From a virus, in the IMG/VR virus record IMGVR_UViG_3300048834_000264, positions 1-33,624 of that record: a DNA stretch of 33,624 nucleotides, one strand, 5' to 3'. Below the pieces are notes generated by a model. That model saw only the letters and a program-made list of their open reading frames with translations. It searched no databases and was not told the origin of the DNA. Of this stretch, positions 10,054 to 24,620 are shown one piece after another. A program made the position numbers and the translations under genes. Numbering within the stretch: the first letter of the stretch is position 1; every line of letters begins with the position of its first letter.

Positions 10054-10466
10054 CCACGACCGACGCCGCCATCATCAAGCGCCTGAGCGCCTACGTTGGC
10101 ATGGACTACGTGGCCGGCGCATTCGACTGTGCCGACCTGGCCGTGCTGGTGCAGCACGAGGTGTTCGGCCGCACCGTTCACCTGCCCACGCACCCGCATG
10201 GCAGCGCCACGCAGCGCGCAGCCATCCTGCGCCACCGCGACGCCCTGGCCACCCGGGTGGACGTTCCGTTCACCGGCGCGGCCGTGCTGTTCTTCGCCGT
10301 CAACCACAAGGGCGACCACGTTTACCACATCGGCACCGCCTGCCTGCACCGTGGCGAGGTGCTGGTGCTGCACAACAGCTACGAAACCGGCGGTGTGCGC
10401 ATGGACAAGCTGCAGGACCTGCTGCGCTGGGGCATGAAGCTGGAGGGGTACTACGCATGGAACTGA
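10050..10466 (+). CDS. NlpC/P60-type tail assembly peptidase, lambda K-like
   Basis: 138 residues. A compact NlpC/P60 fold with likely catalytic Cys27 in FDCADLAVLVQHEVFG and likely His93 in DHVYHIGT; polar partners follow near LVLHNSYETGG. In lambda-like phages this protein joins the tail tip and may help local wall opening at infection. The start overlaps the previous stop (ATGA) and the end overlaps the J-like gene by 10 bases. Confidence 0.83.
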   Translation: MTTTDAAIIKRLSAYVGMDYVAGAFDCADLAVLVQHEVFGRTVHLPTHPHGSATQRAAILRHRDALATRVDVPFTGAAVLFFAVNHKGDHVYHIGTACLHRGEVLVLHNSYETGGVRMDKLQDLLRWGMKLEGYYAWN

Positions 10467-13400
10467 CCGTGCCCGCCCCCGTGCAAGTGATCGAGCGCGA
10501 GCAGGCCGCCCTGGTGGTGACGCCGCACCCGCTGAGCCTGCACGACCAGCGCATCTACAGCGCCCAGGCCGCCGAACTGCAGCCCGGCGAAACGCTGGCC
10601 AGCTTTCTGGCCCGCCACGGCGTGCAGCCCGGCCAGCAGTGGGTGGTGACCATTGGCGGTGTGCTGGTGCACGAGATGCACTGGCCCCGCGTGCGGCCCA
10701 AGCACGGCCACCTGATCGAATGCCGGCGCGTGCCGGAGCGGGACGTGCTGCGGCTGGCGGCCATCGTGGCGCTTACCGTTGCCACCCAGGGCATGAACAT
10801 CTGGCTGCAGACAGCCATCCGCGTTGTCGGCACGTTGATGATCAATAAGCTGCTCGGCCCCAAGCCAGTGCGCGCTGCGCCCGAGCAGGCCGTCAACCCC
10901 ACGTACAGCCTGCAAAGTGGCGGACAGAACCAGTCCCGCCTGTGGCAGCCCATCGGCCTGGTGCTGGGTGAGCCGTGGATGGTGCCCGACTTCGGCGCCC
11001 AGCCCTACACCTTTTTCAAGGACGGCGAGCAGCACCTGTGGCAGGTTTTCAACTGCGGCATCAACTGCGCGGACTTTCACACCATCCGCATCGGGCAGAC
11101 TTCGCTGGACAGCTACCAGGGCGTTACCGTGCTGCGCAGTGGCATGGCCACGGACAACAGCGCATTCCCGGCGCTGGGCACCAGTGTGGACACGGTGGCC
11201 GGCGCCCTGCTGGAAGCGCCCACCGCGCCCGGCGCCTGGGTGCAGCGCACCAGCAGCGCCGGCACCGTGCGCCTTGCGGTGGACGTGGTGGCCAGCCTGT
11301 TCAGTGTGGACAGCGGCAGCGGCGCCTACACCACGCGCACGCTGGACGTGGGCATCGAATACCGCGCCGTCGGATCTGGCACCTGGCTGCCGTTCACCGA
11401 GGCCATTGCCGGCGTGCCCGCCGTGACCGAGACGGTGACCAACGAGAACCGTTACGGCGAATTCGAGTGGACCCGGGTCATCACGCCCGATGTGCCTGCC
11501 GTGCCGGCCGGTGTGCTGCGCCTGAAAAACGCCAACCAGAAGCCCGTGCGCCGCACGGTGGAACTGGCCGTGCCGGCCGGGCAATACGAGGTGCGCCTGA
11601 GCAAGCTCAGCCAGGACTACACCGGAACCAGCGGCGCCAACTCGGTGGAGTGGAGCAGCCTCAAGAGCTACCAGCCCGACACGGCCGACTATGACGGGCA
11701 GGCCCGTATTGCCGTGCAGATCCAGGCCAGCGGGCAGTTGAACGGATCGCTGTCTGAGATCAATGGCATCGGCAAGGCGGCGCCTATGCCCTATTGGGAC
11801 GGCAGCGCCTGGGTGACGGCCACCGACCGCGCCAGCGGCCTGTGCAACCCCGGCGCCATCCTGCTGCTGCTGGCCCGCGGCATCAACAACGGCGCCGGCC
11901 GGCGCATCGCCGGGCTGGGGTTCAGCGATGACCGCATCGACATCGAAGGCCTCAAGGCCTTCATGGTGCACTGCGCGGCCAAGGGCTACCACTTCGACCT
12001 GTACCTGCAGGACACCACCAGCATCGGCGACCTGATGGACGCCGTTTCCGCTGCCGGCATGGGGAAGATCGACTGGCCCGACGGCAAGCTGGGCGTGGCC
12101 TTCTACGCCGACGACGACCCGATCACAGGCGTCATCAACATGGGCAGCATCAAGGCCCGCAGCTTCAGCGTGGAATACCAGACGCTGCCCACCGCCGACG
12201 AGCTGGAGCTGCAGTACATGGACCGGGACCGCGACAACGCCTGGACCAGCCTGCGCGCCACCGTGCCCGGCGTGGCCAGCGTGCGATCGACAGCCCGCAC
12301 GCAGATGGTTGGCGTGACCGGCGAAGCGCACGCCGCCGCGCTGCTGCGCTTCCTCATGGGCCAGAACATCTACCAGCGCAAGACCGTGACCTGCGAGCTG
12401 GACCTGGAGGCCATGACCTACCGCCGGGGGCAGGTGGTGGCCCTGAGCCATGACCTGACGCAGTGGGGGTATGGCGGCCGCCTCATGGCCTGTGAAGCCG
12501 TTGGCGGTGTGGTGCGCCTGACGCTGGACGACAGCGCGCCCGGTTCCATCCCGGCGGGCTACTCGGGCCGGTACATCGGACTGCGCCTGGCGGACGAGCG
12601 GCAGATGCGCGTGTTCCCGGTCAAGCCGTTCAGCGGGCAGGGCAGGGTGATCGAGCTGGATGCCGCATGGCCGCCCGGCGTGCCGCTGCCCGGCAGCAGT
12701 GCCGACAACCCCGCGCACGACTGCCTGTGGGTGTACGACTTCAAGGCCACGCCCGGCCAGCTGCTGCGCATTGCCAGCATCGAGCCCACCGGCGACGGCG
12801 CCCGCCTGACGATGGTGCCCGAGAGCGCGGAGTTCTGGGACTACGTGGCCAACGGCCTGTATGTTCCGCCGCCCAACAACAGCCTGCTGGCCACCGTGCC
12901 CGCTGTCACCAGCGTCCTGCCCGGCGAGTCGCTGGCGCGGCAGGGCAATACCTTCTACACCGAACTGGACCTGAGCTTCCAGACCGATGGCAACTTCAGC
13001 CGCGCCGAACTGTGGGGAAGCACCGCAGGCTTTGAACAGTTGGCCAAGATCGGCGAGACACGCAGCCACAGCATTGGCTGGCGCGGCGGCCTGGACGATG
13101 TGTGGAGCCTGGAGCTGCGCGTGTTCAGCGACACGCGGCAGGCCGAGCCGTTCCGGCTGGAATACACCGTGCAGGGCCTGCGGGCGCTGCCCGAGCCGTT
13201 CGACGTGTTCCAGGTGCTGGCCCAGCCCGATGGCACGCGCGAATTCCGCTTCGGCTACACCACCACGCCGGTGCCGGTGGACTGGCTGGGGGCCGAGATC
13301 CGCTACCTTCCGGGCACCCACACCACCCCTGCGTGGGACGGCATGACGCCGCTGCAGACCGAGCGCACCCACTACACCGCCAGCCCGGTGGAGGTGAACC

Positions 13401-14206
13401 AGCTGCTCAGCGGACCGCACACCTTTGCCTGCCGCAGCCTGGACACCACCGGCAACCTGAGCGACCCGGTTTACTTCCAGATCACGCTGCCGCCGCGCCG
13501 CCTGGGCAACGTGGTTGCCGAGTTTGATGAAGCCGCCGAGGCGTGGACCGGCACCGTGACCAGCGGCGCCGTCAACACCGACAACAACACGGTGGAGGCC
13601 GCCAGCACCACCACCTGGGACAGCCTGACCACCTGGGACACCTGGACCCGCTGGAGCCAGAGCGCTGCGGCCAGCTTCGCCTACACCAGCCCGGTGCGCG
13701 ACTTCGGCGCCGTGTTGACGGCCCTGGTGGACGTGCAGACCACCGCCGCTGGTGACGTGACCATCGAACTGCGCAGCAGCCAGACCAGTGCCGACCCGGT
13801 GGCCAACCCGTCGGCCTGGACGGCCTGGGGCGCCGCCGATGCCAAGGTGACGGCCCGCTACTTCCAGCTGCGCGTGACCGTGGCAGCCAACGGCAGCAAC
13901 CCGCTGGCCGTGCTCTCGGCCATGAGCTACATGGTCAGCGCCCCGCTGCTGACCGAATACATCAACGACCTGGACATCAGCACGCTCACGGGCGGCAACC
14001 GCATTGGCACGGGTGACGTTCGCATCCCGCTGGAGAACACCTACGCCGCCATCCTGGAGCTGCAGGTGGTCATTCAGGACGGCAGCGCCGGCGCCTGGGC
14101 GTGGCAGCTGGTGGACAAAACCCTGACCGGCCCGCGCGTGCAGTTCCGCCTGAACGGCACGCTGGCCGACCCTGATCTCGTGGACTTCATTGTGAAAGGC
14201 TTCTGA
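10457..14206 (+). CDS. Central tail tip / host-specificity protein, lambda J-like
   Basis: 1249 residues, the largest gene. Residues about 40-90 resemble a beta-grasp (ThiS/ubiquitin-like) unit with GETLASFLARHGVQPGQQWV, followed by a hydrophobic stretch at about 95-128. That pair resembles lambda gpI, which is otherwise missing here. The TipJ-type hub follows (GLVLGEPWMVPDFGAQPYTF, IRIGQTSLDSYQGV), then beta-rich domains including an FNIII-like segment near 850-1000, and a variable C-terminal part ending LVDFIVKGF. The C-terminus likely contacts the receptor. Confidence 0.9.
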   Translation: MELTVPAPVQVIEREQAALVVTPHPLSLHDQRIYSAQAAELQPGETLASFLARHGVQPGQQWVVTIGGVLVHEMHWPRVRPKHGHLIECRRVPERDVLRLAAIVALTVATQGMNIWLQTAIRVVGTLMINKLLGPKPVRAAPEQAVNPTYSLQSGGQNQSRLWQPIGLVLGEPWMVPDFGAQPYTFFKDGEQHLWQVFNCGINCADFHTIRIGQTSLDSYQGVTVLRSGMATDNSAFPALGTSVDTVAGALLEAPTAPGAWVQRTSSAGTVRLAVDVVASLFSVDSGSGAYTTRTLDVGIEYRAVGSGTWLPFTEAIAGVPAVTETVTNENRYGEFEWTRVITPDVPAVPAGVLRLKNANQKPVRRTVELAVPAGQYEVRLSKLSQDYTGTSGANSVEWSSLKSYQPDTADYDGQARIAVQIQASGQLNGSLSEINGIGKAAPMPYWDGSAWVTATDRASGLCNPGAILLLLARGINNGAGRRIAGLGFSDDRIDIEGLKAFMVHCAAKGYHFDLYLQDTTSIGDLMDAVSAAGMGKIDWPDGKLGVAFYADDDPITGVINMGSIKARSFSVEYQTLPTADELELQYMDRDRDNAWTSLRATVPGVASVRSTARTQMVGVTGEAHAAALLRFLMGQNIYQRKTVTCELDLEAMTYRRGQVVALSHDLTQWGYGGRLMACEAVGGVVRLTLDDSAPGSIPAGYSGRYIGLRLADERQMRVFPVKPFSGQGRVIELDAAWPPGVPLPGSSADNPAHDCLWVYDFKATPGQLLRIASIEPTGDGARLTMVPESAEFWDYVANGLYVPPPNNSLLATVPAVTSVLPGESLARQGNTFYTELDLSFQTDGNFSRAELWGSTAGFEQLAKIGETRSHSIGWRGGLDDVWSLELRVFSDTRQAEPFRLEYTVQGLRALPEPFDVFQVLAQPDGTREFRFGYTTTPVPVDWLGAEIRYLPGTHTTPAWDGMTPLQTERTHYTASPVEVNQLLSGPHTFACRSLDTTGNLSDPVYFQITLPPRRLGNVVAEFDEAAEAWTGTVTSGAVNTDNNTVEAASTTTWDSLTTWDTWTRWSQSAAASFAYTSPVRDFGAVLTALVDVQTTAAGDVTIELRSSQTSADPVANPSAWTAWGAADAKVTARYFQLRVTVAANGSNPLAVLSAMSYMVSAPLLTEYINDLDISTLTGGNRIGTGDVRIPLENTYAAILELQVVIQDGSAGAWAWQLVDKTLTGPRVQFRLNGTLADPDLVDFIVKGF

Positions 14207-14208
14207 CC

Positions 14209-14925
14209 ATGACTTGGCCATCGTCCGACGTTCCCACCACCGGCATGGACGCCGGCACCGACACGCCGCCGCGCAGCACCTTCCTGGCCTGGGCGCAGGC
14301 GTTCAACCAGATGCGCAACTACGTCACCACCTGGGCGCAGGGACTGCTGGGCAGCGCCGACGCAGCCGCCGCCCGCACCACGCTGGACGTGCCCACGCGC
14401 ACGGGCGGCAACGCCAGCGGCACCTGGGGCATCGGCATCAGCGGCAACGCGGCCACCGCCACCACGGCCACCAACTGCAGCCGCAGCGTGGCCGGCGCCG
14501 GTCTGGCCAGCGGTGGCGGGGCCCTGAGCGCCGACCAGACCATCACCGTGACCAAAGCGAGCCAGGCGCAGGCCGAGGCCGGCACAGACGACGCCACCGC
14601 CATGACGCCGCTGCGCACTGCGCAGGCCATCGCGGTGCAGGCGGTTTCGATTGGCGTCAATCAGACATGGCAGGCCGTCACCCGGGTGGGCAGCACCGAC
14701 TACCAGAACACCACCGGGCGGGCAATTTCTGTCATGTGCACCTTCAACGGCCGCGGCGGAAGAAGCTATGTCGGCGTGAACACGTCCACCTACGTGCAGG
14801 TGGGTGGCAACACATCGTCGATTTCTGACGACGCCAACTCTCGCCCGGTGCACTCGTTTGCGGTGCCGCCAGGGCACTACTACAAGGTGGTTGGAACCAT
14901 CAACAACTTCAAGGAGCTGCGATGA
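14209..14925 (+). CDS. Tail fibre-type protein
   Basis: 238 residues. The N-terminus carries the common phage fibre string AAARTTLDVPTRTGGNASGT, then Ala/Thr/Gly-rich repeats (SGNAATATTATNCSRS) and a C-terminal beta domain with VQVGGNTSSISDDANSRPVH. It follows the J-like gene by 2 bases, the position expected for a side fibre or tip appendage. The C-terminal domain from about residue 140 has different codon use and is probably the variable tip. Confidence 0.75.
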   Translation: MTWPSSDVPTTGMDAGTDTPPRSTFLAWAQAFNQMRNYVTTWAQGLLGSADAAAARTTLDVPTRTGGNASGTWGIGISGNAATATTATNCSRSVAGAGLASGGGALSADQTITVTKASQAQAEAGTDDATAMTPLRTAQAIAVQAVSIGVNQTWQAVTRVGSTDYQNTTGRAISVMCTFNGRGGRSYVGVNTSTYVQVGGNTSSISDDANSRPVHSFAVPPGHYYKVVGTINNFKELR

Positions 14926-23636: not shown

Positions 23637-23721
23637 GCCCAACTCTGTGCTCCAGCGAACTGCCAGAGCGTGGTTTCAATCGGTGCGCCCAGCGGGCAGT
23701 CGCTGAGCGTCGGTGTTCTGT
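23637..23721 (-). repeat. attC-like site 4
   Basis: The longest site, 85 bases. R' GTTGGGC (23643-23637) is perfect; R'' ACAGAAC (23721-23715) is weak. Inner arms CTCCAGCGAACTGCC (23650-23664) and GGCAGTCGCTGAG (23695-23707) pair with bulges. It encodes the C-terminal tail of the methyltransferase. Confidence 0.68.
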
Positions 23722-24620
23722 GGCATCAGCAGGCGCCACGCTTCAGCCGCACATCGCGGCACCTGTCCGTTTCCAATGGCTTTAAGTCGGTCCACCCGAG
23801 CGGCCACCCCATCAGCCACTCGACCCACGTTGGGTTCAGTGCTCCACCAACGGCGTTCGGCAATTGCTCCCCCTTCGCTCCACCGCCTCTTTCTGCGTAG
23901 CTCTTGGCGTTCGGGTGCTTGAAATCCCGGGCAGCCGGCGTCGGCCATTTCGATCGAGCGGAAACCGCCTCGATCAGCGTCCCGCCCTCTCTGCTCTTGC
24001 GCGGTGTCACGCGCCCGCCCTTCGTGCCCAGACTGCTGGTCAGTGTCGGCCAGAGCCTGACCGCCGTCGCCAGTCCGTCGCCGCTCTTGGCACTCGCGCC
24101 TCTGCGGTTGTTGTTCCCGCACACTGTTGGCGTTGGCCACAAGCCAGAATCTGTCGCGCTGGTGAGGCGCCCCAACGTCGGCAGCTCCCAGCACTGTCCA
24201 GCGGCAGTCATACCCGAGCGTGGCCAGGTCACTGAGGACTCGTCCGAGTCCCCGAGTAAGCAGGGCTGGGCTGTTTTCCACGAAGACGAAGCGGGGTCGA
24301 ACTTCGCCCACGATGCGCGCCATGTGCGCCCACATTCCCGATCGAGCGCCGTCGATGCCGGCGCCCTTTCCGGCGACGCTGATGTCCTGGCACGGGAAGC
24401 CGCCAGAAACCACATCAACAAGGCCTCGCCATGGTCGTCCGTCAAAGGTGCGAACGTCATCCCAAACCGGGAAGGCCGGGAGAAGGCCGTCATTCTGTCG
24501 GGCGGCAAGTACGCTTGCGGGGTAGGGTTCCCACTCGACGGCGCAAACGGTGCGCCATCCGAGCAGGTGGCCGCCGAGAATTCCTCCACCAGCGCCCGCG
24601 AAAAGAGCCAGCTCATTCAT
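23676..24620 (-). CDS. Orphan DNA cytosine-5 methyltransferase
   Basis: 314 residues of the C5-methyltransferase family: motif I FAGAGGG (7-13), motif IV GGFPCQDIS with catalytic Cys77, motif VI VENS (114-117), motif VIII QRDRFWLVA (154-162), and the C-terminal VDRLKAIGNGQVP (motif X). It transfers a methyl group from S-adenosylmethionine to cytosine. No restriction enzyme gene is nearby, so protection of phage DNA from host restriction is a reasonable inference. The last 13 residues (QNTDAQRLPAGRTD region) come from attC site 4. It is the only large gene of the array. Confidence 0.88.
   Translation of the reverse strand: MNELALFAGAGGGILGGHLLGWRTVCAVEWEPYPASVLAARQNDGLLPAFPVWDDVRTFDGRPWRGLVDVVSGGFPCQDISVAGKGAGIDGARSGMWAHMARIVGEVRPRFVFVENSPALLTRGLGRVLSDLATLGYDCRWTVLGAADVGAPHQRDRFWLVANANSVREQQPQRRECQERRRTGDGGQALADTDQQSGHEGRARDTAQEQRGRDADRGGFRSIEMADAGCPGFQAPERQELRRKRRWSEGGAIAERRWWSTEPNVGRVADGVAARVDRLKAIGNGQVPRCAAEAWRLLMPQNTDAQRLPAGRTD
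23726..24616 (-). CDS. Second open frame overprinted on the methyltransferase
   Basis: A 296-codon frame on the same strand, shifted by one, starting 4 bases after the methyltransferase start (ATGAATGA). Its predicted protein has MSWLFSRALVEEFSAATCSD, FDPASSSWKTAQPCLLGDS, LWPTPTVCGNNNRRGASAKS and NPTWVEWLMGWPLGWTDLKP. I recognise these strings from a phage hypothetical-protein family. In such high-GC DNA a long second frame alone means little, so this may only mirror methyltransferase conservation. Translation is unproven. Confidence 0.35.
   Translation of the reverse strand: MSWLFSRALVEEFSAATCSDGAPFAPSSGNPTPQAYLPPDRMTAFSRPSRFGMTFAPLTDDHGEALLMWFLAASRARTSASPERAPASTALDRECGRTWRASWAKFDPASSSWKTAQPCLLGDSDESSVTWPRSGMTAAGQCWELPTLGRLTSATDSGLWPTPTVCGNNNRRGASAKSGDGLATAVRLWPTLTSSLGTKGGRVTPRKSREGGTLIEAVSARSKWPTPAARDFKHPNAKSYAERGGGAKGEQLPNAVGGALNPTWVEWLMGWPLGWTDLKPLETDRCRDVRLKRGAC

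What the first reader, a model, noticed from the sequence alone, without database searches (positions are those of the whole stretch)
23676..24620. Cytosine methyltransferase overprinted by a second long frame
The methyltransferase keeps all core motifs, yet a 296-codon frame shifted by one begins 4 bases later and yields strings I recognise from a phage hypothetical family (for example NPTWVEWLMGWPLGWTDLKP). Either that family is a shadow of the methyltransferase widely misannotated, or both proteins are made from the same DNA.
Basis: partly seen in the sequence, partly recalled or inferred. Interest (0 to 1): 0.6.

Follow-up and report, generated by a model that had tools for sequence, protein, structure and literature searches.

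The report
Methylase's DNA-reading half in second frame
In this phage one stretch of DNA appears to encode two proteins at once, the catalytic half of a DNA methylase and, one letter out of register, what looks like its missing DNA-recognition half, and the same double coding recurs in many phages and bacteria where it is usually annotated as a single gene.

Summary
The second frame is real. ORF 23726-24616(-) (ALT, 296 aa) lies in the +1 frame of the C5-methylase ORF 23676-24620(-) (MT), its ATG 4 nt after the MT start. In 128 relatives synonymous shuffling predicts 655 ALT stops; 26 are seen. In 27 ordinary C5 methylases the same test shows no depletion, 310 vs 326. Relatives fetched with MT alone are open too (73 of 80). 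The frame under protein constraint switches along the gene: MT for motifs I-VIII, ALT after motif VIII (21 of 21 independent pairs), both at the C-terminus. AlphaFold orders only MT residues 1-165 and the motif-X helix; the recognition-domain position is disordered. ALT carries WPTPT repeats there and a motif-IX-like LNPTWVEWLMGWP. In L194 and L238 MT stops after motif VIII and ALT also carries motif X. Best reading: MT is the catalytic large domain and ALT the small (target-recognition plus motif IX) subunit of a two-chain C5 methylase, a kind known from M.EcoHK31I, here fully overprinted and widespread. MT therefore does not keep all motifs. No stand-alone ALT gene was found. Expression, assembly and specificity are untested.

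The parts
23676..24620 (-). MT: C5-cytosine DNA methylase, catalytic chain, 314 aa
   Evidence: PF00145 E 9.4e-34; phrog_363 E 3.3e-74; AlphaFold model superposes on M.HhaI Z 22.4, 194 residues
23726..24616 (-). ALT: +1-frame ORF, 296 aa, proposed small-domain (recognition plus motif IX) chain
   Evidence: phrog_1008 E 3.8e-29; stop depletion in relatives and frame-specific constraint
24614..24620 (-). ATGAATG: MT start and ALT start 4 nt apart
   Evidence: ALT start slot is ATG in 67 of 71 MT-retrieved relatives, MT codon 2 AAT 64, AAC 0
24126..24620 (-). MT residues 1-165, motifs I-VIII (motif names by recall); ALT also open here
   Evidence: pLDDT mostly above 85; ALT stops 2 vs 346.5 expected over relatives; MT frame dominates constraint
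23847..24125 (-). middle segment, place of a recognition domain: linker-like in MT, constrained in ALT
   Evidence: omega_MT 1.40-1.47, omega_ALT 0.28-0.29, 21 of 21 pairs; MT pLDDT under 55
23846..24142 (-). three WPTPT-type repeats of ALT (residues 160, 189 and 224 on)
   Evidence: consensus in A3
23783..23839 (-). motif-IX-like LNPTWVEWLMGWPLGWTDL in ALT (260-278)
   Evidence: mostly 90% or more conserved over 98 sequences; weak direct match to an in-frame methylase C-terminus, stronger through L004 and phrog_1008
23727..23798 (-). motif-X-like RVDRLKAIGNGQVPRCAAEAWRLL in MT (275-298)
   Evidence: ordered helix 288-298, within the M.HhaI alignment that runs to the chain's C-terminus

Best explanation
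One DNA segment encodes two co-evolving proteins. MT folds as the large catalytic domain of a C5-cytosine methylase (motifs I-VIII closed by X) with a disordered linker where the small domain should be. ALT, read in the +1 frame from an ATG 4 nt downstream of the MT start, supplies the small domain: a variable recognition part built of WPTPT-type repeats plus a motif IX-like helix. The two chains would assemble into one enzyme that methylates cytosine at a site chosen by ALT, probably protecting the phage genome as an orphan methylase. Shown: both frames are under protein-level selection, and the constrained frame changes after motif VIII. Inferred: both are translated (probably from one ribosome-binding region), ALT binds MT, ALT sets specificity, protective role.
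For: ALT stops 26 vs 655 expected in 128 genes, including 2 vs 346.5 over the core, against 310 vs 326 in 27 control methylases. ALT start kept in 67 of 71. Constraint flips to ALT in the middle segment, 21 of 21 pairs, with omega_MT 1.40-1.47. MT predicted ordered only as the large domain plus the X helix, matching M.HhaI from end to end over 194 residues. ALT-frame ORF of L004 matches the ALT profile (probability 98.9) and its C-terminus is 57% identical to an in-frame methylase C-terminus covered by PF00145. In L194 and L238 MT ends after VIII and ALT carries IX and X. Naturally two-chain C5 methylases exist, M.EcoHK31I with motif IX alone on the small chain (PMC3404938 passages).
Against: No expression or activity data. 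AlphaFold could not fold ALT (pLDDT 57.7). The direct ALT to motif-IX match is weak (probability 12.5%). Core constraint on ALT is mild by one measure (NN/NS 0.74). ALT is broken with MT open in L039 and L121. In most actinophage-type loci IX-X lies in the MT frame (54 of 83 loci scored), so ALT does not always carry motif IX. PMC3404938 places the predicted recognition domain of M.EcoHK31I on the large chain, not the small one.
Confidence: 0.75

Rival explanations
1. ALT is a genuine overprinted protein whose job is unrelated to methylase specificity, for example a regulator or anti-restriction factor.
For: ALT has no known fold or Pfam family; its first ~150 residues resemble no methylase part.
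Against: ALT was never found without MT; constraint moves to ALT exactly where MT lacks its recognition domain; ALT-frame ORFs of L002, L004, L194 and L238 continue into motif IX-X-like sequence.
Confidence: 0.14
2. Programmed +1 frameshifting joins MT motifs I-VIII to the ALT recognition part and motif IX, making one chain.
For: ORF order in L002, L004, L194 and L238 would allow it; the constrained frame changes once after VIII.
Against: A frameshift product needs neither the kept ALT ATG nor an ALT frame free of stops across the core (2 vs 346.5). MT stays under constraint at its C-terminus. No slippery site was searched for.
Confidence: 0.08
3. ALT is only a shadow of MT conservation and base composition; no protein is made.
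For: The window is GC-rich (0.658) and its own open frame alone has P=0.024; MT dominates the core constraint.
Against: Stop depletion holds at GC 0.38-0.60 (28 vs 302 in 72 loci); the middle segment is constrained in ALT only; ordinary C5 methylases show no depletion.
Confidence: 0.03

Closest known systems
M.EcoHK31I (YGGCCR), naturally two-chain C5 methylase
   Same: Large chain with motifs I-VIII and X, motif IX on a second chain (PMC3404938 passages). From recall, the small chain is read in another frame of the same gene.
   Different: There the predicted recognition domain is placed on the large chain; here constraint puts that region in the second frame. ALT is 296 aa and starts 4 nt after MT; the M.EcoHK31I small chain is 176 aa by recall. 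Sequence kinship not testable, its sequence was not held.
M.AquI (CYCGRG), two-chain C5 methylase
   Same: A second chain carries the distal variable region and motif IX; L194, L238, L002 and L004 share the M.AquI partition with X on the second chain.
   Different: In the window motif X is on MT, and the two genes overlap almost entirely.
phrog_1008, 'DNA methyltransferase'
   Same: ALT matches at E 3.8e-29; the profile spans ALT-type N-parts and methylase C-termini.
   Different: The label does not tell that it is an overlapping-frame product.
M.HhaI and M.HaeIII, one-chain C5 methylases
   Same: MT matches their catalytic domain, Z 22.4 and 20.1.
   Different: They carry the recognition domain and motif IX in the same chain; MT does not.

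Membership tests
C5-cytosine DNA methylase (PF00145) | catalytic domain, motifs I-VIII | tested here: met
   PF00145 E 9.4e-34, profile 4-180 of 324; M.HhaI Z 22.4
C5-cytosine DNA methylase (PF00145) | recognition domain and motif IX in the same chain (one-chain type) | tested here: not met
   Pfam match stops at 180; residues ~170-285 disordered and unconstrained in the MT frame
M.EcoHK31I-type two-chain C5 methylase | large chain with I-VIII and X | tested here: met
M.EcoHK31I-type two-chain C5 methylase | motif IX on a second polypeptide | tested here: inconclusive
   sequence resemblance only: weak direct, stronger through relatives
M.EcoHK31I-type two-chain C5 methylase | second polypeptide encoded in an overlapping frame (recalled for M.EcoHK31I) | tested here: met
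   the ORF overlap, with selection on both frames; translation not shown
M.EcoHK31I-type two-chain C5 methylase | both chains needed for methylation; YGGCCR specificity; sequence homology to M.EcoHK31I | not testable with these tools
   no assay; the enzyme's sequence and original paper were not held
M.AquI-type split | motifs IX and X together on the second chain | tested here: not met
   in the window X is on MT; met by L194, L238, L002, L004
phrog_1008 | profile match | tested here: met
   E 3.8e-29, ALT 67-280

The most novel reading that the evidence does not exclude
In a large clade of phage and prophage C5 methylases the DNA-recognition domain is encoded in the +1 frame of the catalytic domain's own gene, so one gene makes an obligate two-chain enzyme. 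The arrangement spans phages and bacteria of several phyla, is old, and is missed by annotation, making it one of the longest and most widespread overlapping gene pairs in prokaryotes.
Probability: 0.6. Interest if true: 0.82.

Novelty: new variant of a known kind. Interest (0 to 1): 0.68.

Why it matters
If right, many orphan phage C5 methylases annotated as single proteins are half an enzyme on paper. Codon-optimised or recoded copies would lose the recognition subunit, and specificities measured on native clones would belong to a two-chain complex. It also offers a natural case in which selection on two frames can be separated segment by segment, and a test of how a domain can move between reading frames.

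Tried and rejected
Shadow of MT conservation: rejected by the GC 0.38-0.60 set, the control methylases and the middle segment. Stand-alone ALT genes: none among the 80 bacterial loci, 8 fetched sampled-genome hits (G001 is the L170 genome; the two weak G227 matches were not opened) and 12 further opened records. The bacterial loci were fetched with ALT patterns, so they are biased towards ALT carriers. The stops that one search reports inside ALT matches of G171, G078 and G180 looked like counter-examples; each has an open ALT ORF over the matched part (in G171 the ALT start slot is not ATG). ALT structure: AlphaFold failed, so no fold search was run on it. PDB by sequence: nothing credible. 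L021 was dropped as a split example because one frame there reads like an HNH endonuclease insertion (by eye). A restart after the ALT nonsense codons of L039 and L121 was considered because Met follows in both, but Met is common at that column (25 of 98). Kinship of the relaxed-specificity Paracoccus prophage methylases (PMC3925955 passages; PMC6536676 passages and section 13) to this family was not tested; an alphaproteobacterial ALT query listed no Paracoccus phage among the 40 rows shown of 73. Paper searches for this overlap found no description; the frame-transition survey returned (PMC3711429, passages) does not describe it in the passages seen.

Rows dropped before counts: 15 of 125 loci without recognised motif boundaries, 18 duplicates and 16 without motifs of 106, 3 of 30, 71 nonredundant of 80; (stricter motif finder, same loci) kept 34 nonredundant and gave 0 middle stops vs 55.2.

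Full report
What is there. The window is a 33,624-base virus record. On the minus strand, 23676-24620 encodes a 314-aa C5-cytosine methylase (MT; PF00145 E 9.4e-34) and 23726-24616 a 296-aa ORF in its +1 frame (ALT), whose ATG lies 4 nt after the MT ATG in ATGAATGAG. ALT has no Pfam or NCBIfam match but belongs to phrog_1008, labelled DNA methyltransferase, and its C-terminus to phrog_26627.

Is the second frame real? In this gene alone the evidence is modest: 0 stops where synonymous shuffles average 2.73, P(0)=0.024, at GC 0.65. The family settles it. Of 80 loci retrieved from IMG/VR with the MT protein, 73 have the ALT frame open up to the last 12 codons. Among the nonredundant new ones 43 of 49 are open; of the six with stops, five have them within about the last 26 codons and one (L121) at codon 144. 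Over 128 nonredundant genes retrieved with either protein or from phage records, 26 ALT stops are seen against 655.3 expected, and 115 genes are open against 0.68 expected; 13 of the 26 stops fall in the GC<0.5 bin, where 3 of 6 genes are open. Split by segment in 110 genes with recognised boundaries: core 2 vs 346.5, middle 0 vs 103.6, C-terminus 6 vs 110.6. The control, 27 ordinary C5 methylases from 143 genomes sampled in the class of G001 (the genome of L170), gives 310 vs 326.4 and none open, so the test is calibrated. The genes are related to each other, so counts are not independent events.

The ALT start is kept. In 71 nonredundant MT-retrieved loci the ALT start slot is ATG in 67. The overlapping MT codon 2 is AAT in 64 and AAC in none, although the same genes use AAT 263 and AAC 462 times elsewhere; the MT start slot itself is ATG 44, GTG 15, TTA 6, TTG 5, CTT 1. 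The ALT start slot is directly preceded in frame by a stop in 63 of the 71 (TGA 60, TAA 3).

Which frame is constrained where. Using non-overlapping pairs of relatives, the core (motifs I-VIII) varies like an MT-coding region: positions 1/2/3 .092/.043/.214, position 3 above position 1 in 54 of 55 pairs. In the middle segment the pattern flips.387/.142/.122, MT position 1 (ALT position 3) above position 3 in 21 of 21 pairs, omega_ALT 0.28-0.29, omega_MT 1.40-1.47. At the C-terminus both frames are constrained (omega 0.24-0.35 in each). In the core the ALT constraint is mild (NN/NS 0.74, SN/SS 0.34). The method counts single changes with a fixed transition weight of 2; it is not a likelihood estimate. 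An all-pairs version gave the same picture.

What the two chains are. The AlphaFold model of MT (mean pLDDT 72, pTM 0.65) is confident for residues 1-165 and a helix at 288-298; residues about 170-285 are low. It aligns to M.HhaI with Z 22.4, rmsd 2.7, 194 residues, from near the start to the C-terminus of M.HhaI, that is, over the catalytic domain with the C-terminal helix. In C5 methylases the small domain holds the variable region and motif IX and makes the specific DNA contacts (PMC3404938, passages). ALT, in the same DNA stretch, carries LWPTPT-type repeats and then LNPTWVEWLMGWPLGWTDL, mostly 90% or more conserved over 98 sequences. The link to motif IX is direct but weak (hhalign E 0.0023, probability 12.5%) and stronger through relatives: the ALT-frame ORF of Mycobacterium phage Phanphagia (L004) matches the ALT profile with probability 98.9 (over ALT 99-200), and its C-terminus is 57% identical over 94 residues to the in-frame C-terminus of the Gordonia phage CheeseTouch methylase (L007), which PF00145 covers to position 316 of 324. 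phrog_1008 spans both. AlphaFold could not fold ALT (pLDDT 57.7, pTM 0.25).

Natural variants. In L194 and L238 the MT frame stops soon after motif VIII and the full-length ALT ORF continues through LNPxWVEWLMGWP into a motif-X-like GNGQVP stretch; Streptomyces (L002) and Mycobacterium (L004) phages show the same, annotated as two adjacent DNA methylases. So motif X may sit on either chain. Among actinophage-type loci most have IX-X in the MT frame (54 of 83 loci scored, including eight added comparison loci; 16 split, 13 incomplete), and there the segment after VIII is constrained in both frames (.223/.132/.208); in these, ALT does not carry motif IX. In a set retrieved with Lacticaseibacillus and Paenibacillus phage methylases, 72 nonredundant loci at GC 0.38-0.60 show 28 ALT stops vs 302 expected from motif VI to just before X, 55 open vs 2.1 expected, and a middle pattern of .388/.234/.257.

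Distribution. All 80 best loci from one-genome-per-species bacteria, fetched with ALT patterns, carry both frames; titles name Pseudomonas, Acinetobacter, Burkholderia, Bradyrhizobium, Pantoea, Akkermansia, Geothrix and MAGs of other groups, where contamination is possible. In an even sample of 321 genomes of the class of G001, 10 had an ALT match at E<=0.001. A Leptospira plasmid (L327) and E. coli genomes also have the pair: a Citrobacter copy matched 41 of 5,426 E. coli genomes, four of them over 60% or more of the query; of two opened, one (L325) has both frames open and one (L326) has both interrupted.

Stand-alone test. None found: 80 of 80 bacterial loci, 8 of 8 fetched sampled-genome hits, and all 12 further records opened from phages, plasmids and E. 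coli (L325-L336) have the methylase in the overlapping frame. Exceptions to intactness: ALT broken with MT open in L039 and L121; MT interrupted with ALT open in L191, L193, L212, L242, L245 and L247; L228 changes frame in both.

Interpretation. The simplest account is a two-chain C5 methylase whose recognition subunit is overprinted on the catalytic gene. Naturally two-chain C5 methylases are known: M.AquI, and M.EcoHK31I, whose large chain has I-VIII, X and a predicted recognition domain and whose small chain has IX (PMC3404938, passages; PMC3439449, passages). From recall, the small M.EcoHK31I chain is read in another frame of the same gene; the original paper was not held. What I did not find described are the full-length overprint with start codons 4 nt apart, the evidence that the recognition region itself lies in the second frame, and the breadth. 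Whether M.EcoHK31I belongs to this family is untested. Translation, assembly and specificity are inferred.

Noticed in passing
window 10451-14221 (-) over 10457-14206 (+): A 1256-aa antisense ORF covers the whole central tail fibre J-like gene (phrog_31). Its frame is codon-aligned with the gene, so the shuffle test says nothing; most likely high-GC codon usage.
   Followed up: partly
L021:2900-3440: The methylase/ALT gene appears interrupted near the motif-IX position by a stretch whose third frame reads like an HNH endonuclease (by eye).
   Followed up: no
L337-L442, MT motif GKRRGKEDDRHLW: In the short-ALT loci the DNA around this motif is strikingly conserved; the ALT Met slot is kept by GAT in 75 of 82 (same genes GAT 670, GAC 966), possibly an internal ALT start.
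   Followed up: partly
L039 and L121: Both carry an ALT nonsense codon at nearly the same place, just before WELPM or LPM, with the rest of ALT conserved downstream.
   Followed up: partly
L325:1053-2039: E. coli PT62 carries a second C5 methylase in the same region with a weaker ALT-like +1 ORF (39 bits).
   Followed up: no
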